Shown piece after piece: positions 43,901 through 60,700 of a DNA stretch of 64,000 nucleotides. The stretch is from Rhizobium binae. Lineage in GTDB: Bacteria > Pseudomonadota > Alphaproteobacteria > Rhizobiales > Rhizobiaceae. The position numbers and the translations under genes were made by a program. Each line of letters starts with the position of its first letter. The stretch's first letter is position 1. The stretch is from positions 124,001 to 188,000 of the forward strand of contig NZ_CP071610.1 of NCBI RefSeq assembly GCF_017357225.1. Direction: 5' to 3'. The notes below the pieces were generated by a model that had not been told where the DNA came from, searched no databases, and worked only from the letters and a program-made list of their open reading frames with translations.

Positions 43901-44161
43901 ATTAAGCTGTCCTCGTCGACTGGGATATCGACAAGCTTCCGGCGATCTTGATCTTTGAGAAGCTTGCGCTTTGCCATCGCCCGACTCCATTCATGACCAA
44001 TCTGCGTGAAGCGTTGTCGAGTCGGGCCGGACAGAGAAATCAAAACTGGCGCATGTCGATGGCAATCCACAGAGATCGGATGTTGCAGATCCGAACTACG
44101 ACATCGTTCCTGTTCCGTTCGGCCTTAGCGTACGATTTCGGACTGCTCTTGTTCTGACCCC
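40946..44161 (-). mobile_element. Tn3-family element carrying only tnpA
   Basis: Terminal inverted repeats of about 48 bases begin ggggg/ggggt then cagaacaagagcagtccgaa at both ends, with about two internal mismatches. The 3.2-kb interior is filled by one transposase gene. No resolvase, res site or passenger gene is visible. Flanking bases (agtct on the left, aaccc on the right) do not match, so the 5-bp target duplication is absent or one flank has been rearranged. Confidence 0.85.
41002..43977 (-). CDS. tnpA: Tn3-family transposase TnpA
   Basis: 991 residues from MAKRKLLKDQDRRKLVDIPV, which is preferred over an ATG 31 codons upstream by family resemblance. The N-terminal DUF4158-type DNA-binding region (LADRLEIELRRRNHNRLGFA) is followed by the large DDE_Tnp_Tn3 domain. 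It includes KRMAGASKGISAHQIGWMRT, SSSDGQFFRASDRAAKRGDI (catalytic Asp), FDQDTVLDIHEHFTDTGGAS and late NLVVSAIVHWNTVYLDRAIT (Glu region nearby). There is no frameshift, so it is likely active and lies just inside both inverted repeats. Confidence 0.93.
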   Translation of the reverse strand: MAKRKLLKDQDRRKLVDIPVDEDSLIRHYSLSLADRLEIELRRRNHNRLGFAIQLCLMRYPGRVLGAEETPPRAMLKYVADQIGATPDEFALYARREETRRDHTARLMVYLDTRSATVQDRRAALLAAIQAATMSDDGAAIASSLVATFRERGALLPAIDTIERIGLAGRAIARRRAERTLIEDIPLDRLQSLDRLLEVDPSIGQTRFHWLRSAPEAPAASNLVGLTERIAFLRRLEIDPELQARVSSGRWDQMIREGNATPAWLASDFNASRRHALIVAQVIKLCQKLTDDAVTMFIKLMGKLFSQANNRKKQRQMDCRANTAKALRMFLDTITALQSANDYGRNALDILDQRVGWDRLLRMKPELELMVDDNEAPPLTVAAEQYATVHKYIGAFLQAFTFRSAHRHDPLLAAIALLKRLYAEKRRTLPDRVPLTHLSQTDRRHIFEQGKPDRRLYEIATLAVLRDRLRSADIWVDGSRSFRPIDEHLMPRSTFITMKEEDRLGLGVQGDGAQWLAEAHQMLDFNLQRLAYRARSGKLEGVRLEAGTLIVTPTVGEVPVAAEELNAEISDMYPLVEVPDLLREVHEWTGFADHFTHVRTGDVPKNVSAMLAGVLADATNLGPKRMAGASKGISAHQIGWMRTFHARSETYRAAQACITDAHTRHPHSRLWGNGTTSSSDGQFFRASDRAAKRGDINLHYGSEPGSKFYSHLSDQYGYFSILPISPTESEAAYVLDGLFDQDTVLDIHEHFTDTGGASDHIFGLFALIGKRFSPRLRNLKDRKFHTFEKSDAYPTLSNHIGAQINTTLILDHWDDLLHLAASITTRSVVPSTILKKLSASPKQSHLARALRELGRIERSLFMIEWYSSPALRRRCQAGLNKGEAAHKLKRAVFFHERGEIRDRSFESQAFRASGLNLVVSAIVHWNTVYLDRAITQLKRAGRDIPDTLSKHISPLSWEHINLTGIYTWDAEHQMPNGFRSLRLPAGLRWVA

Positions 44162-44164
44162 AAC

Positions 44165-44275
44165 CCTGCGATAGTTCGACGCGCGGTTTTGAAGGATTGG
44201 AATCCGCCGATCTTCGGCATGTTCTTCTTCACGCGGAAATGGTCACTCTCAATGGCGTTGGTGCACGGATGTGGA
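44165..44275 (-). pseudogene. IS6-family transposase C-terminal fragment
   Basis: Minus strand. TNAIESDHFRVKKNMPKIGG, then FQSFKTARRTIAGLG, matches the segment around the catalytic Glu of IS6 transposases. It starts immediately beyond the Tn3 right end and ends at the IS5 fragment, so Tn3 apparently inserted into this IS. Confidence 0.6.
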
Positions 44276-44279
44276 ACAG

Positions 44280-44640
44280 AACGGATGGGGATCTTTGAAA
44301 CGGCTGACTGTGACGTGGCTGCCTTGCGGCGGACGGCTTCGGGCGTGCGCAAGCAAGCATGCGGTTGAGGACGGCGCAGCCGATGGCGACTTCGGTCTGC
44401 TGACACCGCAGACGCCGCCCAAATGGACTTGTATCGCCCGATTGCCGTCTTCCGCTTCCGATCGCCATGCGCGCGCCCGACGGCTCAGCGTGGTGTGATC
44501 GGGGACGGCAAGCGCTAAGCCCATCAATTGCAGCACCGATTCCACCAAGCCTTCTGCCTGGCGAAGCCGCAAGCCAAACACCAGGCCCAGCGTCAAGGTG
44601 GTCTCGATTGCCAGATCTGAATAACGGTGCTGGCCGCGGC
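44280..44640 (-). pseudogene. IS5-family transposase fragments
   Basis: Minus strand. HRYSDLAIETTLTLGLVFGL and LRLRQAEGLVESVLQLMGLA appear first, then VPDHTTLSRRARAW. A large internal deletion joins this to AIQVHLGG, then in another frame CQQTEVAIGCAVLNRMLACA. The catalytic Asp region is lost. The 5' end is fused to the P450 remnant, apparently disrupting it. Confidence 0.7.
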
Positions 44641-45035
44641 GCCACGGCCAGGCGCAGCGTGGGGAAGCGCTGGAGATCGTACCGAACACCGCCTTGAGTT
44701 CCAGGCTGGCGAGCGCCAAGCCGATGCAGTAGTGCGGCCAGTAGGAGAACGCCAGGTGCGGCTTTAGGGCGCGTCCGATTTCGAAAATTTCAGGGTCGTC
44801 CAAATGGCGTGGATCGACCGACGTCGCCGGTAGGCCGACCAGCACCTTGCTCTCCGCGGGAATAAGCACGCCCGCGATGGTCACGGCCGTCCCTTGGATA
44901 GCGCATGATGCCATCCCAGCCCGCGCCCGGCCAACGCCTTGTCCACCAGGGATGGATCGCCGACCAGGGTTCGGCTTAAGAGAGCGCGCGTATTCGTCCG
45001 GTCATCGCAGGCGCTCGGGCTGTTTCAGGTTCCGC
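44640..45035 (-). pseudogene. Cytochrome P450, C-terminal remnant
   Basis: Minus strand. LVGDPSLVDKAL in one frame is followed, after a frame change near 44915, by GTAVTIAGVLIPAESKVLVG, SVDPRHLDDPEIFEIGR and HLAFSYWPHYCIGLALASLE. The last contains the haem-binding Cys in the usual F..G.H.C.G setting (here Trp replaces Gly). The match ends GTI where the IS5 fragment begins. Rhizobial symbiotic plasmids carry P450s in the gibberellin operon, but the subfamily cannot be decided from this piece. Confidence 0.7.
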
Positions 45036-46221: not shown

Positions 46222-46965
46222 TCAATGTTTGAGGATCTGGCTGAGAAAAAGCTTCGTACGCTCATGCTGGGGATTGGTGAAGAACGCCTCCGGACTACCT
46301 TCTTCGACGATCTGGCCGGAGTTCATGAAGATGACCCGGTCGGCGACCGCGCGGGCAAAGCCCATTTCATGGGTGACGCAGACCATCGTCATGCCGTCAC
46401 GGGCAAGGCTTGTCATCGTGTCGAGAACTTCCGAGACCATTTCCGGGTCGAGCGCCGAAGTCGGCTCGTCGAACAGCATGACGGCTGGTTCCATGCAAAG
46501 GCTGCGGGCGATCGCGACGCGTTGTTGCTGGCCGCCGGAAAGCTGGGCCGGATATTTGTTGGCCTGCTCGGGGATCCTGACACGCTCCAGGAATTGCAGG
46601 GCCGTTTTCTTTGCCTCGGCGGCGGACACGTCCTTGATCCACATCGGCCCGACCATGCAGTTCATCAGCACTGTCATGTGGGGAAACAGGTTGAAATGTT
46701 GGAATACCATGCCGACATTCTTGCGGACCTCTGCAACGTTGCGCATCTTGTCGTGCAGCGTGATCCCATTGACGGTAATCTTCCCCTCCTGATGCGCCTC
46801 GAGCCGGTTGAAACAGCGGATGAGGGTCGACTTACCCGACCCCGACGGTCCGCAGACGACGATGCGCTCGCCCTTCCTCACCGTCAGGTTGATGTCCTTC
46901 AGTACCTGGAACGCGCCATACCATTTGGCGACATCCTTCGCCTCGATGATCAGGTCCATGCTCAT
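46222..46965 (-). CDS. Polar amino-acid ABC transporter, ATPase
   Basis: 247 residues. Walker A ([20 protein letters not shown]), Q-loop ([20 protein letters not shown]), signature ([16 protein letters not shown]), Walker B ([20 protein letters not shown]) and switch His ([17 protein letters not shown]) are all present. It resembles GlnQ/AapP-type ATPases. The start overlaps the permease stop (ATGA). The substrate is not readable from the sequence. Lying directly after the catabolic operon on the same strand, it may import that operon's substrate. Confidence 0.92.
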
Positions 46966-47936
46966 CTGACTTTACTCCTGGCATAGTGGCGCTCGATGCG
47001 GGACTGGATAAGTTCGAGGCAGATCGACATGCCCCAGTAGATAAGCGCGGTCGAAATCAGCATTTCCATGTGCTGGAAAGTCTTTTGGCCGAGCGTGCGG
47101 GCAAGGAACATCAGTTCCCAGACACCGATGACGGACACCAGCGAACTATCCTTCAGCATGGAAATGAACTGGTTTCCGGTCGGCGGAATGATGACGGGCA
47201 GCGCCTGCGGCAGGATAATGCGGCGCATGGTGATTCCGAAGCCGAAACCCATGGAGCGGGATGCCTCCCACTGGCCGCGATCGATGCTCTGGATGCCGGA
47301 GCGGAAGATCTCGGTCATGTAGGCGCCATAGCAGAGCGACAGAGCGAGGATGCCGGCCGGCACCGCGTCAATGACGAACCCAAGCTGCGGCAGGCCGAGA
47401 TAGATCAAGTAGACCTGCATCAAGAGCGGTAGGCCACGAAAGAAGGACGTGTAGAAGCTGGCGATCGCATAGGCGAAACCGTTGGTCGACAGCTTGGCGA
47501 CAGCGCCGAGGATAGCGATAACCGAAGCGATGACGATCGAGATCGCCGACACATAGAGCGTCGTCACGGCACCTTGTGTGATCAGGAAGGGCAGCTTTTC
47601 CCAGATGAATGGCAGGCTGAGATGAAAGGTCTCGAAGAAAGCCAGAAACAGCATCAGCAGCTCCAGCCAGACAATGGCGATCTGTATCTTCAGTGAGGCA
47701 AAGCCGATCAACACCACGTTCAGGGAAAAGATCACCGCGACGACGAAGGCGACCGCGAAACGTCCGTAGAGCCCGCTTTGCAAGGGATCGCCGATCACCG
47801 GACGCATCAGCTCGCCCATCGTCGTGCCGGTCAGGTTGAATGCGAGGAAGACTGCCAGAATGATGGCGAACATGGTGGCGACGAACCACGGCTTGTGTAC
47901 CAGAATTTCAGCGTCGACTGTATCCGGATAGAGCAT
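46962..47936 (-). CDS. Polar amino-acid ABC transporter, permease
   Basis: 324 residues from ATG 47936, which has the ribosome site aaggacaagag. A longer frame reaching 48026 overlaps the binding-protein gene and is unlikely. Several membrane helices are seen ([60 protein letters not shown]). The EAA-type loop is [20 protein letters not shown], followed by [20 protein letters not shown], as in HisMQ/GlnP permeases. The long N-terminal extension with two extra helices is seen in the AapM-like subgroup. Confidence 0.9.
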
Positions 47937-47992
47937 CTCTTGTCCTTCGGACGGTTTGGCGGCCCGTGTTTGCGGACCGCCAGAGAGGGTGG

Positions 47993-48826
47993 TTATTTCA
48001 CAACGGTGTAGTCGACCCCGTACCACTTGACCGACAGTTTGCTGAGCGTGCCGTCGTTCTGCATGGCTTTCACGGCCTCGGAGATCTTGGCGTCGAATTC
48101 CGCGTCGCCATGCTCGGTTGCGACAGCCAACGGCTCGTAGAATACAGGGTCGCCGAGCTGTTTGATCGGGTACCCGGCCTTCTCCGCATCGATGATGCTC
48201 GGCAGTGAGGAGACGACTGCATCGAGCCGAGTGCCGTCACCCAGGCGCAGATCGTCGAACGCCGTCGTCGAATTGCTGTAGGACTTCACGTCCTTCGGTT
48301 TGAATTCATACTTGAAGGCCGGCGCGCCGGCGGCATCCAGCGTCAGGTCCTGCTTGGCATAGGCCTCGAAAGTGGAAGTCGCCGTCGTGCCGACGGCCTT
48401 GTCGTTGAGGTCGGCAAGCGTCGTCGCCTTGCTGTCCTTGTGAACGGCAACGGCGGCCGGCGTGTAATAGTAGACGCCGGGGAAATCGAAGATCTCGGCC
48501 CGCTTCTTGGTGGGGGTCATCGAGCCGACATGCATGTCCCAGCGGCCAGACCAGTTGCCGGCGGTGATGATGTCCCAGCCGGGGGTTACGAACTCGACGC
48601 TGACCCCTAGGCGCTTGCCGATATCCTTGGCGACGTCCACATCGAAGCCATCGAGTTCGTTCTTGTCGTTCATGAAGGATTGCGGCGCCCAGTTGGCATC
48701 CGTCGCAACCTTGAGCGTCTTGGCCGCCAGCACGCGCTCCAGCACCGCCCCGGCATTGGCCGGAAGTGCTGACAAGGTAAAGGCGAGCGAAGCTGCAAGC
48801 GCCGTCAGTCTGGTGAGATGTCTCAT
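47993..48826 (-). CDS. Polar amino-acid ABC transporter, periplasmic binding protein
   Basis: 277 residues with a signal peptide (RLTALAASLAFTLSALPANA). The SBP_bac_3 fold is clear: TLKVATDANWAPQSFMNDKN, ELDGFDVDVAKDIGKRLGVS, WDMHVGSMTPTKKRAEIFDF and AVKAMQNDGTLSKLSVKWYG. It captures the substrate and delivers it to the permease. It is the first gene of the transporter unit, 149 bases after the end of the catabolic genes, with a hairpin in that gap. Confidence 0.9.
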   Translation of the reverse strand: MRHLTRLTALAASLAFTLSALPANAGAVLERVLAAKTLKVATDANWAPQSFMNDKNELDGFDVDVAKDIGKRLGVSVEFVTPGWDIITAGNWSGRWDMHVGSMTPTKKRAEIFDFPGVYYYTPAAVAVHKDSKATTLADLNDKAVGTTATSTFEAYAKQDLTLDAAGAPAFKYEFKPKDVKSYSNSTTAFDDLRLGDGTRLDAVVSSLPSIIDAEKAGYPIKQLGDPVFYEPLAVATEHGDAEFDAKISEAVKAMQNDGTLSKLSVKWYGVDYTVVK

Positions 48827-48903
48827 GCTGTCTGTTCCCTTTGTTGTTGATGGGTTCTACGGCTCAACCCTCCCGGTCTCGCCGCCGTGGTCGTCATTTA
48901 GTC

Positions 48904-48933
48904 ATCACCGGATGGGCCCGGTCTTCCGGTGAT
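48904..48933. terminator. Inverted repeat between catabolic genes and transporter
   Basis: ATCACCGGA (48904-48912) and TCCGGTGAT (48925-48933) form a perfect 9-bp stem with a 12-base loop, just downstream of the carboxymuconolactone-decarboxylase-like gene on the minus strand. No clear T-run follows. It could attenuate read-through into the transporter or serve as an mRNA-stabilising hairpin. Confidence 0.5.
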
Positions 48934-48974
48934 CCGGAGGATGTTTGTGCTGCTGCTTGCTTGAAACGGCGAAA

Positions 48975-49364
48975 TCAAAGCTCCCCTTTCTCGCGCATCT
49001 CGGCGCGGACATTGCCTGCTACGCGGAAAGCCTCGACGCCTGCGGGAATTCCGCAATAGACGGCGATCTGGACGAGTGCGGCGCGCAGCTCGTCGTCGGT
49101 CACGCCGTTGCGGATCGCGCCGCGGACATGGATCCCGAACTCGTGCATGCGATTGAGGGCCGCGAGCATTCCAAGGTTGACAAGGCTGCGCTGCTTGAGG
49201 TCGAGGCCGTTGTCGGTCCAGGCGGCACCCCAGCAATATTCATTGAGAACATCCTGGAAGGGCCGGGAGAAATCGTCGGCATTGCCGAGAGCGCGATCGA
49301 CATAATCGTCCCCGAGCACCTTGCGTCGCACGGCCTCGCCAGCCTGCCGGAGCATCTTATCCAT
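48975..49364 (-). CDS. Carboxymuconolactone decarboxylase-family protein (PcaC-like)
   Basis: 129 residues. YCWGAAWTDNGLDLKQRSLV, NLGMLAALNRMHEFGIHVRG and AIRNGVTDDELRAALVQIAV, then YCGIPAGVEAFR, match the gamma-CMD family (all-helical, AhpD-like fold). It lacks a CxxC pair, so a peroxidase role is unlikely. Its start overlaps the hydrolase gene by eight bases. In this operon it may act on a dicarboxylic ring-cleavage intermediate, but that is inferred from position. Confidence 0.82.
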   Translation of the reverse strand: MDKMLRQAGEAVRRKVLGDDYVDRALGNADDFSRPFQDVLNEYCWGAAWTDNGLDLKQRSLVNLGMLAALNRMHEFGIHVRGAIRNGVTDDELRAALVQIAVYCGIPAGVEAFRVAGNVRAEMREKGEL

Positions 49365-50169
49365 GGCTCACCTCTTCTGATGCAAGGAAATCTCCCATCA
49401 GGCGGGCCACGGTCGCCGGGGCCTCGATGAGAATGGAGTGACGCAGACCCGGCAGGATCGCCAGCGTCGAGCCGGGGATGCGGTCATGCATGTAACTGGC
49501 CATGCGCGGGTTTGAGCCGGCATCCTCCTCTCCGGTCGCAATCAGCGTCGGGCAGCGGATCTGGTCGAGAAACCCGCCGAAATCCGTTTCCGCCAGAACA
49601 CGATAGGCGGAGGCGTAACAATCGGGATCGTTCTCGGCATCCCGCGCGCGCAGTCTCTCGATAATCTCGGGATTGCGTTCCTGAAACCCTTCCGTCAGCC
49701 AGCGCGACAGCGAGGCATCGTGATGGGCGCCGGGATTACCGATCCTGAGCGCTGCAAGCCGTGTCAGGACGCGTTCGCGCTCCTCCGAGGTGCGGCCGGC
49801 GACCGTGGAGAGAAGCACTAGTTTTCTCAACCGCGCTTGATGGGTGAGCGCCAGTCGCTGTGCGATCAGCCCGCCGAGCGAGAAACCCGCCAGATGGAAG
49901 GTCTCGAACCCCGCATGCGCCGCCAGCGTCAGCGTCTCGGCGACGAAATCGTCGATTTCATAACGGCCCTTGATGCGCGTAGACCGCCCGTGGCCACGCA
50001 GGTCGAAGGTCAGGATTGTGAAACGATCCTTGAGCTCAGCCACCACGCCGCCCCACGCCTCCAGAGACGACCCGACGCCGTGGATGCAGACCAGCGGCTC
50101 CACGCCGTTGCCGTCGATACGGAAGTTGAGCGTTACATCGCCGACGGTATGTTGCCGAAGCTGCGTCAT
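49357..50169 (-). CDS. Alpha/beta hydrolase (TgnD-like amide/enol hydrolase candidate)
   Basis: 270 residues from ATG 50169, one base after the monooxygenase stop (TGAGATG). Oxyanion loop CIHGVGSSLEAW, strand FDLRGHGRSTRIKGR, nucleophile elbow LAGFSLGGLIAQRL (Ser), later LIATGEEDAGSN (Asp candidate) and LRHSILIEAP (His) give a full triad. In A. baylyi, TgnD, an alpha/beta hydrolase, cleaves the N-formyl-enamine in trigonelline breakdown. The same neighbours here make that role plausible. A 3-oxoadipate enol-lactonase-like activity is the alternative. Confidence 0.8.
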   Translation of the reverse strand: MTQLRQHTVGDVTLNFRIDGNGVEPLVCIHGVGSSLEAWGGVVAELKDRFTILTFDLRGHGRSTRIKGRYEIDDFVAETLTLAAHAGFETFHLAGFSLGGLIAQRLALTHQARLRKLVLLSTVAGRTSEERERVLTRLAALRIGNPGAHHDASLSRWLTEGFQERNPEIIERLRARDAENDPDCYASAYRVLAETDFGGFLDQIRCPTLIATGEEDAGSNPRMASYMHDRIPGSTLAILPGLRHSILIEAPATVARLMGDFLASEEVSHG

Positions 50170-50170
50170 C

Positions 50171-51250
50171 TCAGCGCCCCGAACCCACTGCACGCTGGCG
50201 GTCTTGTTCACGAGCCGCGAAGAATGGCATGACTTCATCGACGAACAGCCGCAGCGTCTTCTTCTGCAGTTCAAACGGCAGGTTGAACGTGAGGCCCAAG
50301 CAATATTGATCGACGCCAGCCGCCTCGTAGGCGAGCAGTTTTTCGATCACTTCGTCCGGCGTTCCGAACATCAGGTTTTTGCGAATATTGTCCGGATTGT
50401 AGTTGTCCTTGCCCTTAACGCTTTCGAACGGGACCGCTTCCGGAAAGCCTTCCCGGACCGCGCCGATATTCTGCATGAGGTTCTCGAAAGTCCTGCCATA
50501 GTCCATGCTGTGCTGGACGGCGAGTTGCCAGTCCTCGGGCCTGTCGTAGACACAAGTCCGGCGCTGCATCATGAAGCGCGGCCGCGGGACCTCCGGATGA
50601 TCGGCGACAGCCTTTTCGAACTTGTCAGCGAGAACCTGGATTTCGGCTGCAGGTGCTGACAACGGTGTCGACAGAATATTGGCGCCGACGCTGATTGCCC
50701 AGTCAAACGTGCCGGGATCGCGTGCCGCGACCCAGATCGGCGGATGCGGCTGCTGCAGCGGTTTTGGCACCGCCGTCGCAAGTGGGAAGTTCCAGTATTG
50801 GCCATTATGGGCATAGTCGCCCTGCCACAATTTCCTCACTGCCGGCACCAATTCCTTGAGATAAGCGACGCCTTCCTGCTGCGGCATGCCGCCGGCCATG
50901 CGGTCGAATTCATATTGGTAGGAGCCGCGGGCAATGCCGAATTCCAGCCGGCCATCCGTCAAGTGGTCGCAAAGAGCCGCCTCACCGGCAAGCCGGATCG
51001 GGCTCCAATAGGGCGCAACCAGAGTCGAGGTGCCGAGGCGGATCTGGTCGGTGTGTTGTCCGAGCCATGTCAGTGTCTGGAACGGATTGGGGGAAATCGT
51101 GCATTCGATCGTGTGATGCTCGGCGGTCCACAGCGTTTCAAAACCGCCCTCGTCGGCTATCCGGGCAAGCTCGAGCAGGTTGTTCTTGACCCTGGACATC
51201 GGCGCGTCCGGCGAGAAACGTTCCATGGTGAGTGAGACTGCGAATTTCAT
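50171..51250 (-). CDS. Luciferase-like flavin-dependent monooxygenase (TgnB-like)
   Basis: 359 residues from MKFAVSLTMERFSPDAPMSR, the natural LLM start. An ATG eight codons upstream is less likely. LLM family blocks: FETLWTAEHHTIECTISPNP, QIRLGTSTLVAPYWSPIRLA, LEFGIARGSYQYEFDRMAGG and GTPDEVIEKLLAYEAAGVDQ. It uses reduced FMN supplied by the flavin reductase two genes upstream. In the trigonelline pathway the oxygenase TgnB opens the pyridinium ring. The same two-component arrangement here supports a ring-opening or N-heterocycle role. RutA-like pyrimidine cleavage is less likely without other rut genes. Confidence 0.85.
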   Translation of the reverse strand: MKFAVSLTMERFSPDAPMSRVKNNLLELARIADEGGFETLWTAEHHTIECTISPNPFQTLTWLGQHTDQIRLGTSTLVAPYWSPIRLAGEAALCDHLTDGRLEFGIARGSYQYEFDRMAGGMPQQEGVAYLKELVPAVRKLWQGDYAHNGQYWNFPLATAVPKPLQQPHPPIWVAARDPGTFDWAISVGANILSTPLSAPAAEIQVLADKFEKAVADHPEVPRPRFMMQRRTCVYDRPEDWQLAVQHSMDYGRTFENLMQNIGAVREGFPEAVPFESVKGKDNYNPDNIRKNLMFGTPDEVIEKLLAYEAAGVDQYCLGLTFNLPFELQKKTLRLFVDEVMPFFAAREQDRQRAVGSGR

Positions 51251-51290
51251 GAGTTTTCCTCCCTCGCGGGCCAAGGTTTCTTTTGTCCGG

Positions 51291-52802
51291 TCACTTCAGG
51301 CGAATGACGAAGGGGTCCTGCATGGCGCCGGAATAATCGATGATGACGTTCTTCAGCCGCGAGAACTCGCGCATCACCTCGAAGCCGCCGCGCCGGCCGT
51401 AGCCGCTCTCCTTGAAGCCGCCGTTGGCGGACATGAAGGACGATGAGCGATAGGTGTTGATCCACACCGTTCCCGCCTCGACCTGGTTGGCGAAGCGCAA
51501 GGCGCGGTCGATGTCCTTGGTCCAGATGCCGGAGGCAAGGCCATAGCGTGTATCGTTGGCTAGAGCGATCATCTGCTCTTCCGACGAAAAAGGCATGACG
51601 CCGACAACCGGACCGAACAGCTCGTCGCGCATGAATGTCATGTCGTTCTGCGCATCGACCATGACGGTGGGCTCGAAATACCAGCCGCGTCCAAGCTCGC
51701 CCGATTGCGGCCGCTTGCCGCCGGCCGCGACCCTTGCCCCTTCCTTCACGCCGGAAGCGACATAGCCCTCGACCTTGGAGAGTTGATCGGCCAAGGCGAG
51801 CGGACCGATATCGGTCACGTCGACAGTCGGGTGGCCGACCCTGATGCGCTGTGTGCGGGCAACAAGTGCCTCGACGAAACGGTCGTAGACACTTGCCTCG
51901 ACGAAGCAGCGCGAGCCGGCAACGCAGGTCTGCCCTGCCGCAGCAAAGACACCGGACACGACGCCATTAACGGCATGCTCGATATCGACATCGGCAAATA
52001 CGACATGCGGAGACTTGCCACCCAGCTCCATCGAGCAAGGAATGAGGTTTTCCGCTGCGTTTCCGGCGATACGCCGGCCAGTCGCGGTGCTGCCAGTGAA
52101 GACATATTTGGCGATGCCCGAATGCCGTGTCAGCGCTTCGCCCGCATTTTTGCCCGTGCCGGTGACGACGTTGACGACGCCGGCGGGAAAGCCTGCCGCG
52201 GCAATCAGCTCGGCAAGCGCCAGCGTCGAGGCGGTCGCGTGTTCGGACGGCTTGATAACGACGGTGTTGCCGATGGCAAGGCACGGCGCCAGCGTACCGG
52301 TCAGAAGCATCAGCGGCGAATTCCACGGCGTTATCATGCCGACGACGCCGATCGGCTCGCGGAGGTTGAAGTTGAGCATCTCTAGCTTGTTGACCGGGAT
52401 CGTCTCGCCCTGCAGCTTGTCGGCCATCCCGGCGAAATAGTGATAAGCGTCCGGCATGGCGCGCATCTGCGCCCGTGTTTCCTTGAGAAGCTTGCCGTTG
52501 TCGCGCGTCTCGATATCAGCCAGTTCGTCGGCGTGCTCCAGTACGAGATCGGCCAGCCTGCGCACCAGACGGCCGCGGTCGGTCTGCGTCATCCGCCGCC
52601 AAGTGGGGTCGCGAAAGGCGGCCTGCGCCGACGAAACGGCCGCCTCCACGTCATCGGCGTCGGCTTCGGCGAGTTCGTACCAGCATTCGCCAGTGGTCGG
52701 GTCGAAGCTGTCGATGTAGCGCCCATTCTTCGGCGCCACCAACTGGCCGCCGATGAACAGACCCTGACGTGACCCTTCGATGGTTTTGACTGTCGTCTTC
52801 AT
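51291..52802 (-). CDS. Aldehyde dehydrogenase (TgnC-like)
   Basis: 503 residues from MKTTVKTIEGSRQGLFIGGQ (ATG 52802). An ATG eight codons upstream and a longer frame overlapping the reductase gene also exist. NAD-binding region (GVVGMITPWNSPLMLLTGTL, VVIKPSEHATAS, FTGSTATGRRIAG), catalytic Glu in MELGGKSPHVVF, Cys in AAGQTCVAGSRC and the C-terminal GGFKESGYGRRGGFEVMREF are intact. It oxidises a semialdehyde to an acid. Position between reductase and monooxygenase matches TgnC, which oxidises the ring-opened N-methylformamido intermediate. Confidence 0.88.
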   Translation of the reverse strand: MKTTVKTIEGSRQGLFIGGQLVAPKNGRYIDSFDPTTGECWYELAEADADDVEAAVSSAQAAFRDPTWRRMTQTDRGRLVRRLADLVLEHADELADIETRDNGKLLKETRAQMRAMPDAYHYFAGMADKLQGETIPVNKLEMLNFNLREPIGVVGMITPWNSPLMLLTGTLAPCLAIGNTVVIKPSEHATASTLALAELIAAAGFPAGVVNVVTGTGKNAGEALTRHSGIAKYVFTGSTATGRRIAGNAAENLIPCSMELGGKSPHVVFADVDIEHAVNGVVSGVFAAAGQTCVAGSRCFVEASVYDRFVEALVARTQRIRVGHPTVDVTDIGPLALADQLSKVEGYVASGVKEGARVAAGGKRPQSGELGRGWYFEPTVMVDAQNDMTFMRDELFGPVVGVMPFSSEEQMIALANDTRYGLASGIWTKDIDRALRFANQVEAGTVWINTYRSSSFMSANGGFKESGYGRRGGFEVMREFSRLKNVIIDYSGAMQDPFVIRLK

Positions 52803-52839
52803 ATCAACGGTCCTGCTTTTCAAATTCATTCTACGCGGC

Positions 52840-53823
52840 TTAATCTTGAGCGACCGGCATCCAGGCACGCGCCTGACCGTCGATCATCGCCACCCGGCCG
52901 CCGTCGCCCGTGTCCATGTAGATGCCGAAGCGCTTTTCCTGCCGTTCACGTACGTAGCGGCGCAGCATCGACCGCAGTTCGTGGGTCGGTATCAGGTCGT
53001 AGGGCAAAGCGTCGATCGGGAAGAATTGTAGCCCCGCAGGCAATGCGGAACCGGCGGCGTCGGCCGCGAGCCGGGCGCGATAGATCAGGTAACCCGGATC
53101 GCTGTCGGCAACGTCGAAGACCGAGTAGAGAAACGTGTCTTCAGAGACGAGGCTCAGCGCATCGCCATCATCGATCATCAGGCGGCTATCGGCCTTGCGC
53201 CGTCTTGCCGTCGGCAGGACCCAGCCGCCTTTGCCATCAGAGCGCAGAAGCAGATTGTCCTCGGCCTCGATAAGATAGCCGATGATCATGCCATGCGAGG
53301 CAAGCCAGCCGGCGGGCAGCGGATCCTTAACGCTGGCATACCGGCCGCGGCAGAAGCCGAGCGGCGCCGAAGGGCTGGTACCGAACGCCTGCACCTGGCC
53401 AACGAGGATGACGTGATCGCCGGCATCGACGCGGGTATGAACCGTGCAATCGAACCAGGTCAGGCTGTCGGTCAGGATCGGCGAGCCCGTGTGCACCCGG
53501 TCATGGTTGACCGACTGGAACTTGTCGGGGGATTTCGACGCGAACGTTGCCGAGACGTCAACCTGGCCTTCATGCAGAAGATTGACTGCAAAAGCCGGGG
53601 CCGCCGTGAAGGCCGGAAAACTCGATGCGGATTTTCCGACACAGACGAGCAATAGTGGTGGATCGAGCGACACGGAAGTGAAGGAATTGGCGGTCATGCC
53701 CCGGGGCGTGCCATCCTCATCCAGCGTCGTGATCACCGTAACGCCAGTGACGAACGTGCCGAAGGCGCGGCGCAGGGCGATGGGGTCGATTGCCGTATCG
53801 GGTCTTGCTGCTATTTGCGCCAT
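52840..53823 (-). CDS. Flavin reductase with C-terminal extension (TgnA-like)
   Basis: About 327 residues from MAQIAARPDTAIDPIALRRA (other ATGs 4-20 codons upstream). The first 165 residues are a flavin reductase domain (RRAFGTFVTGVTVITTLDED, RGMTANSFTSVSLDPPLLLV, DHVILVGQVQAFG). The last 150 residues form a second, Nudix-like module (GYLIEAEDNLLLRSDGKGGW, LQFFPIDALPYDLI) lacking an obvious catalytic Nudix box, so it may sense or bind a ligand. It reduces FMN for the downstream monooxygenase. It is the first gene of the operon, 128 bases after the regulator gene. Confidence 0.82.
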   Translation of the reverse strand: MAQIAARPDTAIDPIALRRAFGTFVTGVTVITTLDEDGTPRGMTANSFTSVSLDPPLLLVCVGKSASSFPAFTAAPAFAVNLLHEGQVDVSATFASKSPDKFQSVNHDRVHTGSPILTDSLTWFDCTVHTRVDAGDHVILVGQVQAFGTSPSAPLGFCRGRYASVKDPLPAGWLASHGMIIGYLIEAEDNLLLRSDGKGGWVLPTARRRKADSRLMIDDGDALSLVSEDTFLYSVFDVADSDPGYLIYRARLAADAAGSALPAGLQFFPIDALPYDLIPTHELRSMLRRYVRERQEKRFGIYMDTGDGGRVAMIDGQARAWMPVAQD

Positions 53824-53889
53824 CGTTCCTGCCATCCTCATTCCAGTTCGATGAAAGAAGGCTACCGGCTGGCGACCAGCCATTCTTCC

Positions 53890-53936
53890 TCCTGTCCGCA
53901 GGAAGGGATGGGAATTTCCTGCTCAGATCGGCAGGA
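53890..53936. promoter_or_regulatory. Two TCCTG...CAGGA dyads before the catabolic operon
   Basis: TCCTG-N4-CAGGA (53890-53903) and TCCTGC-N8-GCAGGA (53917-53936) lie 70-115 bases upstream of the flavin-reductase start. The same half-site sequence used twice in a short promoter region suggests an operator, most simply for the adjacent PucR-type regulator. A TCCT...AGGA fragment also occurs between the regulator and the divergent gene (around 55908). Confidence 0.4.
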
Positions 53937-54011
53937 CACCGAAAATGGCCAAGCCGTACGCTTCCGCGGCCACAGGCGCGGCCCGCCGATTTAAGAATCC
54001 AATTATGAGCG

Positions 54012-55841
54012 CTAGTTTTCGACGGGGCTGCGATTGTCGATCACGGCATGCAGCCGCAGCGCCAATTCAACGGCGAAGCGCTTTTCCGGCGTCTCCACAT
54101 CGATGCCGAACAGCTCCTGAATACGCGACAGGCGATATCGCAGCGTCGTCACATGCAGGCCCATCGTATCCGCGCAGGCCTGGCTGCGGCAGCCTTCCTG
54201 CAGGAAGGTCGACAGCGTTTCGAGATAGGGCGTGCCGTTTTTACGGTCATGCTCGGCGATGGCGCCGACGCTGTCATGAACGAACCCCCGGATATCGCCG
54301 GCATCGGACGCCGCGACCAGCAACGGCAGCGGCCCGAAATCCTGCCCGGACAGCGCGCCGGTGCGACCGAAGGAACGGCCGATGCGGATCGTGCGGCTGC
54401 ACCGCTCCCAGGCCGCGGGATAATCTGCAAGACCGCTGCAGCGATTGCTGGCGACGACGATCGGCCCTTCCTCGAAGGAATGCCCGAGATCCTCGGCGAT
54501 ACGGCGCATCACCTTGTTGAGTTTCTCCTGCCGCTTGCTGGCATCGAACGGCACCAGGCACACCAGCCCACCTTCTGTGGCAATCACGCTCGCCGGCATC
54601 GACGCCTGCTGCAATGTCCGTGCAACGCTGTGTTCGACATCGATCGAGATACCGCCGAGGCTCTTCGTGCGCTCCGGAAAGTCGACGACGATCATCTGCT
54701 GCGCGGCTGCAAAATTCAGCCCGAGACGCTGCGCCCGCTGCAGCACATCGCTGGCATTGCGCCAACGTTGCTCGACAACCTCGAAAAACAGTTCCGTCTG
54801 GGTGCGGGTCTCAAATCGGAATCGTACGAAACTGCGCATCATCTGGACATTGAGCGCGAACTTGGCGCTGTCGAGCATCAACAGATCCAGATCGCTGAAT
54901 TCGCGCGACGACGGAAAGATGATCAGCGCACCGACCAACTGGGCATCGACGTTCAGAGGCTCGATCCGCGCCGAAATCGTGAACCGGCGCGTGCCGTCAT
55001 CGAGAAACAGATTGGCCGTCTCGCTGCTGCCGTGATCGATCGCGTCGCGCGCAGCGCGCATCAAAGGCCGGCGGAGCGACGTCGCCGCCACCTCCTGCCA
55101 GGCGGCATCCTCGAACTGACCCAGATTGGGAGACCGACCGGGGATCACCTGGCTTGTGGTGAAATCGATGACGACAAGCGGATTGGGCAAGAGGGCGCCG
55201 ATCATGCTCGACAGCGAAGCGACCGACCCGTCGGCCAGCACGTGTTCCAATAGCGAAGTATGGGCCTGCAATGCTTTCTGCAGGCGGTCGGACGAGCGCT
55301 TCTCCGCTTCCAGCCGGTGCTGCCGCTCGATGGCGATTGCACCGAGATGAACGATCATGCCGAGGAAAGCGAGGTCGTCTTCCGAGACTTCGGTGATCTG
55401 TCGCGCGATCACGCTCAGCACCATCGGCCGGCCCTCGCTGTCGGCACAGCTCATCGGCATGACCAGAACCGTGCGGTAATCACGCTCGAACGCCTCGCGC
55501 CGATAGCCCGGAAATTCCTCGGATTCTCGCGCATCGCGAATATAGACGGGTTCGTTGCGCTGAAGCGCAATCAGCGACGGGCTCGTCGCCAGTTCCCACT
55601 TGTCCGGCAATTGCCGCTGGATCAGCGTCGGATCGTGCCGCACGACGACATGGGCATAGCCATGCGCCGCATCGATCGCCATGATCGAGCCCAGCGTCCA
55701 ATGCGCGTGACGGCAGGCGGCAATGATCAGGTCGCGCAGGACAGTCGTGAGATCGCCCCCGCTGTTGATCTGGCTGGCGACATCCCTCAATGACAAGATC
55801 TGCGATTTCTGGTCCACGCTGCGCATGTGCTCCCTGGGCAA
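54012..55841 (-). CDS. PucR/CdaR-type transcriptional regulator with GAF domain
   Basis: 609 residues. The N-terminal 190 residues form a GAF-type sensor (LRDVASQINSGGDLTTVLRD, MVIHLGAIAIERQHRLEAEK). A middle ligand-sensing region and a PucR C-terminal HTH follow (ETLSTFLQEGCRSQACADTM, LHVTTLRYRLSRIQELFGID). Such regulators control use of purines, aromatics and N-heterocycles. It is transcribed toward the catabolic operon and divergently from the DUF1185 gene, so it likely controls both. Confidence 0.85.
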   Translation of the reverse strand: MPREHMRSVDQKSQILSLRDVASQINSGGDLTTVLRDLIIAACRHAHWTLGSIMAIDAAHGYAHVVVRHDPTLIQRQLPDKWELATSPSLIALQRNEPVYIRDARESEEFPGYRREAFERDYRTVLVMPMSCADSEGRPMVLSVIARQITEVSEDDLAFLGMIVHLGAIAIERQHRLEAEKRSSDRLQKALQAHTSLLEHVLADGSVASLSSMIGALLPNPLVVIDFTTSQVIPGRSPNLGQFEDAAWQEVAATSLRRPLMRAARDAIDHGSSETANLFLDDGTRRFTISARIEPLNVDAQLVGALIIFPSSREFSDLDLLMLDSAKFALNVQMMRSFVRFRFETRTQTELFFEVVEQRWRNASDVLQRAQRLGLNFAAAQQMIVVDFPERTKSLGGISIDVEHSVARTLQQASMPASVIATEGGLVCLVPFDASKRQEKLNKVMRRIAEDLGHSFEEGPIVVASNRCSGLADYPAAWERCSRTIRIGRSFGRTGALSGQDFGPLPLLVAASDAGDIRGFVHDSVGAIAEHDRKNGTPYLETLSTFLQEGCRSQACADTMGLHVTTLRYRLSRIQELFGIDVETPEKRFAVELALRLHAVIDNRSPVEN

Positions 55842-55983
55842 GCCGTAGTCTGCACCGTTTCCTCCCGTTCATTCTACTCTTTTTGGGAGGAGAATGCAGT
55901 CGTCCATTCCTCTCAGGAGCAGGAAGACTTCAAGGCTTGCTACTTACTAGTTTCGCCGTCATCATCAACGAAAGATCGCGACC

Positions 55984-56571
55984 ATGGATATCGGCGTTAG
56001 GAAAATTGCCACGTTCATCGAGGAGACCTTCAACGAAGGCGGCAAGGATGCGGAGCGGCCGATCACCATGGTGGTGGTCGCAGCCATCCTGCGCAATCCA
56101 TGGGCTGGACAGGGTTTCGTCGACAATTTGCGACCGGAAATCCTGCGCGTGGCGCCGGTGCTTGGCCAGGAACTAACACGCCGGTTGCTTGCCCTGATGC
56201 CCGCTGAAAAGGTCGAGGCTTTCGGCAAGACCGCCGCCGTCGGCGTCAACGGAGAAATCGAACACGGCTCGGCCCTGATCCATACGCTCCGTTTCGGAAA
56301 CGTCTTCCGCGAAGCGGTCGGCGGTACTTCCTACCTGGAATTCACCAACACGCGCGCAGCCCCCGGAGCACTCCTCTCGCTTCCGATGACGCACAAGACT
56401 GAGTCCGGCAAGCGCTCGCACTTCCTCACCGCCAGCTTCCAGATCGCCGATGCGCCAGGACCGGACGAGATCGTCGTCGCGATCGGGACCTCTGACAGCG
56501 GCCGCGCCCATGCCCGCATTGCCGACCGCTTCCAGGACATGGCGGAAATGGATACCGAAAAGCGCACGTGA
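55984..56571 (+). CDS. DUF1185 / amino-acid-synthesis family protein
   Basis: 195 residues, ATG 55984. MDIGVRKIATFIEETFNEGG, PITMVVVAAILRNPWAGQGF, EAFGKTAAVGVNGEIEHGSA, LIHTLRFGNVFREAVGG and HKTESGKRSHFLTASFQIAD fit the DUF1185 family, which has a suspected but unproven enzymatic role. Its divergent position next to the PucR regulator links it to the catabolic operon, and the substrate may be an intermediate of that route. Confidence 0.8.
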   Translation: MDIGVRKIATFIEETFNEGGKDAERPITMVVVAAILRNPWAGQGFVDNLRPEILRVAPVLGQELTRRLLALMPAEKVEAFGKTAAVGVNGEIEHGSALIHTLRFGNVFREAVGGTSYLEFTNTRAAPGALLSLPMTHKTESGKRSHFLTASFQIADAPGPDEIVVAIGTSDSGRAHARIADRFQDMAEMDTEKRT

Positions 56572-56651
56572 GCCGCGCCCTGCGCAGCATAAGCATCAAA
56601 GGGCGACGTCAAGGATGAGAGCTGTTGCGTACCGGCAGGATACGAACCCGC

Positions 56652-57146
56652 ATGAAACTTGACGCGATCGATCTGCGCATCCTCGAGGCTGTCCAGCGCG
56701 ACGGCCGCATCACCAAGGTGGCGCTAGCAGAAGAGGTCGGACTGTCGCCGACCCCCTGCTGGATGCGGCTTCGAAAACTGGAAAAGTCCGGTATCGTCTC
56801 CGGCTATCACGCCCGCGTCGCGGTGCGTCGCATGGCGCCGGTCGCCAGCGTCATGATGGAAGTCACCCTGGAAAACCATCGACGGGCCGATTTCGATCGT
56901 TTCGAGCGCGCCGTTGCCGCCATCACCGAAATCATCGCCTGCTGGTCGGTCGGCGGCGGAGTCGATTATATCCTGAAGATTATGGCCGCCGATATCGACG
57001 CTTATCAGCGGCTGGTCGATGGCCTGCTCGACCGCGAGATCGGCATTGCTCGCTATTTCACCTATATCGTCACCAAGACGGTAAAGGAGAAAACCACGTT
57101 GCCGCTGTCGGTGCTCTTGTCCGCGCCAGACGCGCCGAACAGCTAG
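56652..57146 (+). CDS. Lrp/AsnC-family transcriptional regulator
   Basis: 164 residues from MKLDAIDLRILEAVQRDGRI (ATG 56652), 80 bases after the DUF1185 gene. An ATG nine codons earlier lacks the family start. The HTH is TKVALAEEVGLSPTPCWMRL, then RKLEKSGIVSGYHARVAVRR, with an RAM ligand-binding domain (CWSVGGGVDYILKIMAADID). Members of this group regulate amino-acid-related catabolism. Likely cotranscribed with the DUF1185 gene. Confidence 0.9.
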   Translation: MKLDAIDLRILEAVQRDGRITKVALAEEVGLSPTPCWMRLRKLEKSGIVSGYHARVAVRRMAPVASVMMEVTLENHRRADFDRFERAVAAITEIIACWSVGGGVDYILKIMAADIDAYQRLVDGLLDREIGIARYFTYIVTKTVKEKTTLPLSVLLSAPDAPNS

Positions 57147-57768: not shown

Positions 57769-60700
57769 TCAATGAAAATTCCTGCTCTTCACCTTCAGCG
57801 TATCGATATGAAGGTCAGGCACGAACATGTCGCGCACGGCTATAACCGGCTTCGGTTTGTCCCGTGGATCAGGCCCTCCGGCTCTGGCAAACTCATCACC
57901 ACGGCCGGCCGGAAGCGTGAACTCTTCATCGCGATCGGCAAGGCCGGTCAGATCGCCTGACAGATCGAACAGTTGCTGAGCGACAAGATGCACCACCTCC
58001 CCTTCCCGCTGAATCCGACCATTGATCGCCATCATCGAGGATCCGAGCACGACCCGCCGGCGTTTTTCAAACAGCGTCGGCCAGACGACGAGGTTGGCCG
58101 GCCCGGTCTCGTCCTCGATGGTGATGAACATGACGCCCTTGGCCGATCCGGGCTTTTGCCGCACCAGCACAAGTCCTGATGTATAGACCCAACGCCCGTC
58201 CCTCGAGTTCATCGCCTCGGCACAAGTGATAATGTTGCGCACTGATAAATCCTTGCGTAGGAAGGCAATCGGATGCTGCCGCAATGTCAGTCCGGTATGA
58301 CTATAGTCCTCGATAACATTGTGCCCGTCCGTCATCTGTCGAAGCAGGACTTCAGGCTCCTGCTGCTCGGCGATTGCAGCCCTCTCCCGTTCGGCAGCCG
58401 CCGCAAACAGCGGCAGGGGTTCGTCGCGCAGCGCCTTGATCGCCCAGAGCGCGTCGCGGCGTTCGAGCTTCAGCGACGGCAGGAAGGCATCGGCCTTGGC
58501 AAGCTGGACGAGCGCCTCCGATGGCACGCCGGATCGCCGCCACATATCGTCAACCGAGGCAAAGGCATTGTCCATGCGTGCCGCGACGATGCGCGCCGCG
58601 TCAGCGACCGCCAGTCCTTTCACCTGCCGGAAACCGAGCCGTACGGCGTGGCGGCCAGAATTGCCGATCCGCTCCAGCGTGCAGTCCCACCGGGACCGAT
58701 TGATGCAGACCGGCCGCACCTCGACGCCGTGGGCTCTCGCATCGCCGACGATCTGCGCCGGAGCGTAAAAACCCATGGGCTGCGAATTGATCAGCGCGGC
58801 ACAGAAGGCTTCCGGATAGTGGCATTTGATGTAGCTCGACGCATAGGCGATCAGCGCGAACGAAGCCGCATGGCTCTCCGGGAAACCATAGGAGCCAAAG
58901 CCTTCGAGCTGGGAGAAGGTCTTTTCGGCGAATTCCGGCGTGTAGCCGTTCCTCACCATGCCGGACACGAGCTTGTCCTTGAACCGCGAGACGCCGCCGG
59001 TGAACTTGAAGGTCGCCATCGATTTGCGCAGCTGGTCAGCCTCGCCACCGGTAAAGCCGGCGCAAACCATCGCCACCCTCATCGCGCTCTCCTGAAACAG
59101 CGGCACGCCCAGCGTCTTGCCGAGCACCGCCTCAAGCTCGGGCGTCGGATATTCGACGGCCTCCTTGCCTTCGCGCCGGCGCAGATAGGGATGCACCATG
59201 TCGCCCTGGATCGGACCGGGCCGGACTATGGCGACCTGCACCACGAGGTCGTAGAAGGTTCGGGGTTTCAGCCGCGGCAGCATCGCCATCTGAGCGCGGC
59301 TTTCGATCTGGAACGTGCCGAGCGTATCGGCCTTGCGGATCATCGCATAGGTCGCAGGATCCTCCTGCTCGATGTCAGACAGGTCGAGATCCCGATCCTT
59401 GTGCTCGCGGATCAGATCGAAGGCCTTGGCCATGCAGGTCAGCATCCCAAGGGCCAGGACGTCGACCTTCATGAATTTCAGGGCTTCGACGTCGTCCTTG
59501 TCCCATTCGATGATCTGACGGTCCTTCATCGTGGCCGGTTCGATCGGCACGAGATCGTCGAGCCGATCATGGGTGAGGACGAACCCGCCCGGATGCTGGC
59601 CGAGATGCCGTGGCGCGCCCATCAATTGCTGCGCAAGCTTCAAGGTCAGCACAAGACGCCGGTCGTCTGGATTGAGATTGAGTTCGCTAACATTGCGATC
59701 GCAGACCTCCTCCGACCAAGCCCACATGCCCGACGACAAGGCCTTGATCACGTCCTCCGGCAGGCCGAGCGCCTTGCCGACATCGCGGATCGCGCCGCGC
59801 GCCCGGTAGCGCGTCACGGTGGCGCAGAGCGCTGCCTTTTCTCTGGAATAGGTGCGATAGATCCACTGGATCACCTCTTCCCGCCGCTCGTGCTCGAAAT
59901 CCACATCGATATCCGGCGGCTCGTCGCGCTCCTGGCTGACGAAGCGCTCGAACAAAAGATCGTTTGTCGAGGGATCGATACTGGTGATGCCGAGAATGTA
60001 GCAGACGGCGCTGTTGGCGGCGGAACCCCGCCCCTGGCAAAGAATGCCCTGGGACCGCGCATAGCGCACGATCGAAAAGACGGTCAGGAAATAGGGCGCG
60101 TATTTCATGGTGCGTATGAGATCGAGCTCGTGCCGCACGACCTTCAACACATCAGGCGGTAGTCCTTCAGGATAGCGATCAGGCACGCATTGCCAGACAT
60201 AATGCTCAAGAGACGCTTGCGCGTCCTTGCCTGGGAGAATGGCCTCCTCAGGATATTGATAGGTCAGCTCCTCGAGCGAGAACCGACAGCGGTCGGCGAT
60301 TTCAATCGTCCGGGCCAGTGCATCCGGGTAACGGGGGAACAGTCGCTGCATCTCTTCCGGTGGCTTTAGGAAGCGGTCGGCGTGGCGTTCCCTTTCAAAA
60401 CCAACATCGTCGATCGTCGTGCGGGTGCGAATGCAGGTGACAATGTCCTGCAGCTGTCGGCGGCCTGGCTCGTGGAAGAGGACATCATTGGTGACGACCG
60501 TCCGCACCTTGAACCGCGCCGCAACATTGGAAATCTCATGCAGCCGCAGCTGGTCGTTCTGCCGGCGTCGCAGACAAAGCGACACATAGGCCCGATCACC
60601 AAACAGCTCGGCCATCTTGCGCAGCTGGATCGCGCAGACGTCATCCGGCAGATCCGGCACAAGAATGCCGATCATGCCGTCGTTGTACGCGATGACATCG

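What the first reader, a model, noticed from the sequence alone, without database searches (positions are those of the whole stretch)
48975..55841. Putative trigonelline-type N-heterocycle catabolic operon with its own importer
Flavin reductase, aldehyde dehydrogenase, luciferase-like monooxygenase and alpha/beta hydrolase in one operon equal the TgnA, C, B, D set that degrades trigonelline in Acinetobacter baylyi. Here they are followed by a PcaC-like protein and a polar amino-acid ABC transporter, and led by a PucR/GAF regulator instead of the regulator type I recall for tgn. Trigonelline is a legume seed and root compound known to be used by rhizobia, so the locus fits plant-associated nutrition. 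The extra CMD and DUF1185 genes suggest a variant route.
Basis: partly seen in the sequence, partly recalled or inferred. Interest (0 to 1): 0.7.

Follow-up and report, generated by a model that had tools for sequence, protein, structure and literature searches.

The report
Sister version of trigonelline-degradation operon
A plasmid-borne operon of a rhizobium-like bacterium carries the same enzyme set that opens the ring of the plant betaine trigonelline, but its five core enzymes belong to a separate sister lineage, so it probably feeds on a related compound whose identity is unknown.

Summary
The genes are real and correctly placed: a 9.6 kb module (46222-55841, minus strand; DUF1185 and Lrp divergent on plus) with PucR regulator, flavin reductase, aldehyde dehydrogenase, luciferase-like monooxygenase, alpha/beta hydrolase, CMD and an ABC importer. 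I located the Acinetobacter baylyi tgn cluster (recognised indirectly, by a recalled marker protein matching at 100%) and compared each protein. All are homologous, but the window monooxygenase is only 41% identical to that of A. baylyi, while the Sinorhizobium meliloti pSymA one is 72% identical to it, and S. meliloti without pSymA does not grow on trigonelline (PMC4207669). The window lineage ('type B') is a clean clade in trees of all five core enzymes, apart from the tgn lineage; Rhizobium etli CFN42 carries both types on different plasmids. So this is a tgn-like ring-opening cassette, not an orthologous tgn operon. In 15 of 31 type B loci the importer is a ProVWX system that keeps the betaine-binding aromatic box, which suggests a betaine substrate. 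Most likely: uptake and oxidative ring opening of a quaternary N-heteroaromatic betaine other than trigonelline. The substrate is unproven; trigonelline remains possible (0.25).

The parts
46222..46965 (-). ABC importer ATPase (polar amino acid type)
   Evidence: Pfam ABC_tran 134 bits; best NCBIfam GlnQ and EhuA, both below cut-off
46962..47936 (-). ABC importer permease (ORF reaches to 48026)
   Evidence: BPD_transp_1; start from homologous locus
47993..48826 (-). family 3 solute-binding protein
   Evidence: SBP_bac_3 115 bits; nearest solved structures are amino-acid binders
48975..49364 (-). CMD / PcaC-like protein
   Evidence: CMD Pfam; TIGR02425 PcaC 135.9 bits, below cut-off 155.7; 50% to the CMD protein beside the SSADH gene in the A. 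baylyi cluster
49357..50169 (-). alpha/beta hydrolase, TgnD/PcaD-like
   Evidence: Abhydrolase_1; 29% to the A. baylyi hydrolase of the cluster
50171..51250 (-). luciferase-like flavin monooxygenase, TgnB-like, type B
   Evidence: Bac_luciferase; 41% to the A. baylyi LLM of the cluster; type B clade; luciferase fold
51291..52802 (-). aldehyde dehydrogenase, TgnC-like
   Evidence: Aldedh 567 bits; 44% to the A. baylyi dehydrogenase next to the LLM
52840..53823 (-). two-domain flavin reductase, TgnA-like
   Evidence: Flavin_Reduct; matches PDB 3rh7 over nearly its whole length; 36% to the A. baylyi reductase of the cluster
53884..53904 (-). inverted-repeat site TTCCT-N9-AGGAAGA upstream of the flavin reductase, putative operator
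   Evidence: one of two matches in the window, 0.04 expected; relaxed form upstream of the reductase in 12 of 31 loci
54012..55817 (-). GAF-PucR transcriptional regulator (ORF reaches to 55841)
   Evidence: HTH_30, GGDEF_2, GAF_2
55907..55927 (+). second copy of the inverted-repeat site, between the regulator and DUF1185
55984..56571 (+). DUF1185/AA_synth protein, TgnF-like
   Evidence: PF06684 217 bits; 53% to the A. baylyi DUF1185 protein next to the hydrolase
56625..57146 (+). Lrp/AsnC regulator, often near DUF1185
   Evidence: AsnC_trans_reg; recurs near the module in many of the loci

Best explanation
A catabolic cassette for a quaternary N-heteroaromatic betaine, most likely a pyridinium betaine other than trigonelline. 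The ABC importer brings the zwitterion in. The flavin reductase makes FMNH2, which the LLM monooxygenase uses with O2 to open the ring. The aldehyde dehydrogenase oxidises the exposed aldehyde or lactol. The alpha/beta hydrolase splits the N-formyl enamine acid, and CMD and DUF1185 assist. The GAF-PucR protein controls both divergent promoters. Shown here: gene content, orthology relations, shared cis sites, betaine-type importer in sister loci. Inferred: every reaction step, by analogy with the Tgn pathway (recalled). Unknown: substrate and end product.
For: Each core protein is homologous to the A. baylyi tgn cluster, found in a genome whose AtfA matches a recalled ADP1 sequence 100% over 458 residues. 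Type B is a clean clade in 5 of 5 enzyme trees (support 92-100); the lineage of A. baylyi, S. meliloti pSymA and R. etli p42c is separate, and itself a clean clade in 4 of 5. LLM identity to the window is bimodal: in the window's family 8 genomes at 83-100%, one at 58%, the others 38-48% (60 of 346 with a match); in the family of G249 21 at 77-80%, the others 41-45% (51 of 299). Both kinds co-occur in R. etli and in 6 sampled genomes, whose second copies fall in lineage A (2) or C (4). S. meliloti without pSymA does not grow on trigonelline (PMC4207669, one passage); pSymA carries type A. In 15 of 31 type B loci the importer is ProVWX, and all 19 ProX proteins found there keep Phe/Trp/Trp at the betaine-box positions. 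34 LLM columns are at least 90% fixed to different residues in types A and B, while the E-H-H motif is kept.
Against: No substrate evidence for type B. Sequence divergence need not mean a new substrate, and gene content alone cannot exclude trigonelline. The window importer is of the amino-acid type, not ProVWX. SSADH genes near 8 of 31 type B loci would fit the same end product as trigonelline, though some of these loci also hold ectoine genes. The cited trigonelline phenotype removes all of pSymA, not the cluster alone. DUF1185 lineage A is not a clean clade, and long-branch warnings were printed.
Confidence: 0.58

Rival explanations
1. It is a divergent but isofunctional trigonelline operon; strains with both types simply have two versions with different regulation or importers.
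For: Same enzyme set including DUF1185 and CMD; betaine-type importers beside sister loci; SSADH genes near 8 of 31 type B loci, as in the A. baylyi cluster; the A. oryzae locus lies beside genes that resemble a nicotinate route (resemblance recalled).
Against: 41% against 72% identity to the A. baylyi LLM; separate clade in all five trees; coexistence with type A in R. etli and two further genomes of the family; S. meliloti growth on trigonelline depends on pSymA, which carries type A.
Confidence: 0.25
2. A special case of the best explanation: the substrate is homarine (N-methylpicolinate), the 2-carboxy isomer. Ring opening on the other side of the nitrogen would give an N-methylglutamate-type product.
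For: The authors of PMC8269262 argue that TgnAB is unlikely to act on homarine for steric reasons (passages), so a variant LLM would be needed; type A has Phe/Trp where type B has Leu/Gly at the end of the last barrel strand.
Against: A homarine pathway is already reported (Ferrer-Gonzalez 2026, seen only as a citation); its genes could not be compared. No N-methylglutamate dehydrogenase is named in the annotated type B neighbourhoods, though I did not search for it. In one search all 10 hits in family f17 (presumed Rhodobacteraceae, marine members among them) were 38-47%, not type B.
Confidence: 0.12
3. The operon serves a non-pyridine compound: an aromatic lactone route (the PcaD-PcaC-like pair) or ectoine-type solute breakdown.
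For: Hydrolase and CMD both best match a PcaDC fusion model; in R. etli the operon sits between ectoine genes and DoeB lies near type B in L185, L188 and probably L190.
Against: All PcaC/PcaD models are below cut-off; DoeB in the window genome is on another contig; a CMD protein of the same type sits in the A. baylyi cluster.
Confidence: 0.05

Closest known systems
tgn cluster of Acinetobacter baylyi (trigonelline degradation; Perchat 2018, not held)
   Same: All six families (A, B, C, D, DUF1185/F, CMD) are homologous and clustered; TgnF is the DUF1185 homologue according to PMC7913881 (passages).
   Different: 29-53% identity; gene order A-C-B-D-CMD instead of F-D-A-B-C-...-E-CMD; PucR instead of GntR/FCD; ABC importer instead of a cytosine/purine-type permease; no SSADH gene in the module (A. 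baylyi has one over cut-off).
tgn-type locus on S. meliloti pSymA and R. etli p42c
   Same: Same families, plasmid-borne in rhizobia, with its own ABC importer.
   Different: Lineage A; 41% LLM identity to the window; the S. meliloti LLM is 72% identical to that of A. baylyi.
Rut pathway (RutA/RutF/RutD) for pyrimidines
   Same: Luciferase-like oxygenase, flavin reductase and alpha/beta hydrolase open an N-heterocycle (recalled).
   Different: NCBIfam RutF and RutD models score far below cut-off.

Membership tests
tgn (trigonelline) operon | Homologues of TgnA, B, C and D clustered | tested here: met
tgn (trigonelline) operon | Oxygenase in the TgnB orthologous clade | tested here: not met
   Separate starred clade; 41% against 72% for S. 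meliloti pSymA
tgn (trigonelline) operon | Reductase, dehydrogenase and hydrolase in the Tgn clades | tested here: not met
   Lineage A and type B are separate clades in the FRed, ALDH and ABH trees
tgn (trigonelline) operon | DUF1185 (TgnF) and CMD present | tested here: met
   53% and 50% identity; but DUF1185 too is in the type B clade
tgn (trigonelline) operon | Succinate-semialdehyde dehydrogenase (TgnE) in the cluster | tested here: not met
   No second Aldedh among the module's genes; 5 SSADH genes over cut-off lie on other contigs and could serve from there; SSADH near 8 of 31 type B loci
tgn (trigonelline) operon | Growth on, or enzyme activity with, trigonelline | not testable with these tools
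   needs bench work
quaternary betaine catabolic locus | Importer of a family that binds quaternary ammonium | tested here: inconclusive
   ProX box kept in sister loci, but the window itself has an amino-acid type importer

The most novel reading that the evidence does not exclude
The tgn gene set is one branch of a family of at least four co-inherited ring-opening cassettes. Type B, found in plant-associated and soil Proteobacteria, is dedicated to a different quaternary N-heteroaromatic betaine (homarine or another plant or microbial pyridinium betaine), giving these bacteria a second pyridinium-betaine pathway beside trigonelline.
Probability: 0.5. Interest if true: 0.6.

Novelty: new variant of a known kind. 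Interest (0 to 1): 0.45.

Why it matters
It puts in doubt a label ('flavin-dependent trigonelline monooxygenase') that 6 of the 120 listed type B homologues now carry, and shows that the five-enzyme cassette has diversified as a unit. If type B takes another betaine, rhizobia such as R. etli use at least two pyridinium-type compounds by parallel plasmid-borne cassettes, which bears on what plants offer to soil bacteria and gives a direct two-mutant test.

Tried and rejected
Label transfer: 6 of 120 listed homologues carry the name 'flavin-dependent trigonelline monooxygenase'; rejected as evidence because the identity of the window LLM to the A. baylyi one is only 41%. Two protein searches (120 rows shown each) showed no row naming Acinetobacter. 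A 16S pattern over 398 genomes of the phylum found no match. The genome-contig scan did not return A. baylyi (best 88%), but gave Acinetobacter handles from which the genome was reached. The reading 'SSADH neighbours prove a succinate-semialdehyde end product' was dropped after DoeB and ectoine genes were found beside some of the same loci. A first ORF-based neighbourhood table was spoiled by antisense ORFs and replaced; one search crashed and was repeated. Trees left out the A. baylyi locus L122, and other near-identical rows, before it was recognised; one search includes L122 but again a chosen set of rows (19 type B, 15 lineage A, 7 C, 3 D, 1 intermediate, fewer where a gene was not found). 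Type B is one clade in each of these trees, but lineage A is not a clean clade in the DUF1185 tree, and long-branch warnings were printed. The operator motif was found by looking at the same sequences, so only the second window site (55907) counts as independent support; the relaxed form was not found upstream of the reductase in 19 of 31 loci, all 12 from the family of G249 among them. Of the type B hits, 10 of 59 plasmid records at 60% or more and 20 of 29 other genome hits (G751 included) were fetched with their neighbourhoods.
Full report
WHAT IS THERE. The window carries a compact module on a contig that also holds a RepC gene (C7 at 217096), so it is taken as a repABC plasmid. On the minus strand, in transcription order: GAF-PucR regulator, two-domain flavin reductase, aldehyde dehydrogenase, luciferase-like monooxygenase (LLM), alpha/beta hydrolase, CMD protein, solute-binding protein, permease, ATPase. 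Divergent to it, on the plus strand, stand DUF1185 (AA_synth) and an Lrp/AsnC regulator. The LLM is modelled as a luciferase barrel (mean pLDDT 81) and matches bacterial luciferases in the PDB. The flavin reductase matches PDB 3rh7 over nearly its whole length.

THE DECISIVE COMPARISON. The characterised tgn cluster is that of A. baylyi ADP1; the original paper (Perchat 2018) is not held, so its gene functions are recalled or taken from passages of PMC7913881, which say that TgnF is a DUF1185 homologue and stimulates TgnE, which oxidises succinic semialdehyde. To find the cluster I scanned genome contigs with a recalled ADP1 wax ester synthase, used the resulting Acinetobacter handles to search 24 genomes (25 asked, one not held; 6 with a match at E <= 1e-20, 5 of them at 41%) and then 149 genomes of the genus. 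19 of 149 had an LLM at E <= 1e-60, all 39-42% identical to the window. One of them, G531, matches the recalled synthase at 100% over 458 residues, the others at 92% or less; it is taken as A. baylyi. Its locus (L122) reads, in transcription order, DUF1185, hydrolase, flavin reductase, LLM, aldehyde dehydrogenase, cytosine/purine-type permease, unassigned ORF, SSADH (over the TIGR01780 cut-off), CMD, with a divergent GntR/FCD regulator beside DUF1185.

Pairwise identity, window to A. baylyi: LLM 41% over 358, reductase 36%, aldehyde dehydrogenase 44%, hydrolase 29%, DUF1185 53%, CMD 50%. For comparison, the LLM of S. meliloti pSymA, a rhizobium, is 72% identical to that of A. baylyi. A closer counterpart of TgnB therefore exists in rhizobia, and it is not the window protein.

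TWO LINEAGES, INHERITED AS UNITS. In an LLM tree of 57 rows the window falls in a starred clade (type B, 25 rows) with rhizobia, Thalassospira, Azospirillum, Pandoraea, Caballeronia, Methylobacterium, Halotalea and Pseudomonas, while Acinetobacter, S. meliloti pSymA, R. etli p42c and Rhodobacterales lie in the other half. With A. baylyi included, type B is a clean clade in all five enzyme trees (support: LLM 100, reductase 99, aldehyde dehydrogenase 92, hydrolase 99, DUF1185 98), and lineage A is clean in four (LLM 98, reductase 99, aldehyde dehydrogenase 96, hydrolase 97) but not in DUF1185. Two further groups appear: C (second copies of the G249 family and Mesorhizobium WSM1497) and D (Aminobacter and relatives); C is not a clean clade in the aldehyde dehydrogenase and DUF1185 trees. 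One locus, G751, at 58% LLM identity, branches next to type B in the reductase, dehydrogenase and hydrolase trees and, with support 83, in the LLM tree, but not in the DUF1185 tree.

Identity is bimodal in genome samples: 3 genomes at 80-100% and 20 at 38-47% among 398 of the phylum; 8 at 83-100%, one at 58%, the others at 38-48% among 346 of the window's family (60 with a match); 21 at 77-80%, the others at 41-45% among 299 of the family of G249 (51 with a match; I take it for Burkholderiaceae, as G249 branches with Caballeronia and Pandoraea). Both kinds occur together in R. etli CFN42 (type B on p42f; type A with an SSADH gene on p42c), in 2 of the 8 and in 4 of the 21 type B genomes of these samples. 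The second copies of those six were fetched: two are lineage A, four group C. The window genome has no type A LLM (next best match 28%).

LINK TO TRIGONELLINE. PMC4207669 (one passage) states that wild-type S. meliloti grows on 10 mM trigonelline as sole carbon source and the strain lacking pSymA does not. The pSymA of strain ABS7 carries the type A cluster near noeB and nifT, in keeping with the title of Goldmann 1991, seen in a reference list. Among the 60 of 311 plasmid records listed, the S. meliloti rows were all about 41% to the window; chromosomes were not searched. Trigonelline is thus tied to lineage A in two organisms, and to type B in none that I found (literature searches: in an open-licence library only).

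WHAT TYPE B IS LIKELY TO TAKE. Of 31 loci (window, 10 plasmid records, 20 genome regions; one of them the 58% locus), 15 have the window's amino-acid type importer, 15 have ProVWX-type genes, and the 58% locus has neither. The A. fabrum ProX aligns with E. coli glycine betaine-binding ProX (PDB 1r9l) and keeps two of the three box tryptophans, with Phe for the third (the box positions are recalled). The same Phe/Trp/Trp is found in all 19 ProX proteins collected from these loci (20 rows, the A. fabrum protein entered twice; 19 different). This supports a quaternary ammonium substrate for the lineage, less directly for the window. In A. oryzae the cluster lies beside an FAD monooxygenase, a hydrolase, an Amdase-family and an isochorismatase-family protein, reminiscent of nicotinate breakdown (recalled; three of the four have no NCBIfam match at E <= 1e-30 and the fourth none over cut-off).

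The end product is open. SSADH genes lie near 8 of 31 loci, but in R. etli the operon stands between ectoine-type genes, and DoeB lies near it in L185 and L188 (TIGR02994 above cut-off) and probably L190 (Pfam match). In R. leguminosarum CB782 gabD and a GABA aminotransferase follow on the same strand. The window genome has 5 SSADH genes over cut-off, none on its contig C7. LLM columns at least 90% fixed to different residues in 149 type B and 16 lineage A rows number 34; the E-H-H motif is at least 95% conserved in both and invariant in the 34 sequences. Differences include Phe-Trp (A) to Leu-Gly (B) at the end of the last barrel strand. That these line the pocket is inference; no coordinates were available.

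REGULATION. The pattern TTCCT-N4..9-AGGAAGA occurs exactly twice in the window (0.04 expected): upstream of the flavin reductase and upstream of DUF1185. A relaxed form lies upstream of the reductase in 12 of 31 loci, 11 of them among the 15 with the amino-acid type importer. It is a plausible operator of the PucR-type protein.

VERDICT. It works like a Tgn cassette and is a sister of it.

Noticed in passing
window 41002-44070 and 44249-44914: Tn3-family transposase, and next to it an ORF matching both a piece of cytochrome P450 and a DDE transposase piece; insertion-element debris beyond the operon's importer end.
   Followed up: partly
window 57769-62534: A polymerase III alpha-type protein (DnaE2-like, name recalled) and an IMS/ImuB-like Y-family protein lie beyond the Lrp gene.
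   Followed up: no
L135:9081-10019 (S. meliloti pSymA): PDB entry 3rh7, named only 'Hypothetical oxidoreductase', is nearly identical to the flavin reductase of the S. meliloti type A cluster, so it appears to be an unrecognised TgnA-type structure.
   Followed up: yes
L009 (R. etli p42f): The type B operon sits between an aminotransferase/SSADH/Lrp group and an Lrp/PLP-dependent regulator-ehuABCD-eutA group, as if inserted into an ectoine utilisation region.
   Followed up: partly
L183 (G751:C3:150000-169000): Intermediate lineage: LLM and aldehyde dehydrogenase 58-59% but reductase 41% to the window; branches next to type B in four of five trees.
   Followed up: partly
L127 and L182: No CMD gene was detected in these two type B loci, which suggests that CMD may be dispensable.
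   Followed up: no
L010, L129, L130, L134, L135: A NIPSNAP-family protein follows both type A and type B cassettes in several loci; its role is unknown.
   Followed up: no
type B loci L010, L130, L185-L187, L190-L192, L194, L195: A GhrA-like D-2-hydroxyacid dehydrogenase gene (36-42% to the A. fabrum one in the L185-L195 loci) recurs next to DUF1185 in 10 of 31 loci; it may belong to the pathway.
   Followed up: no
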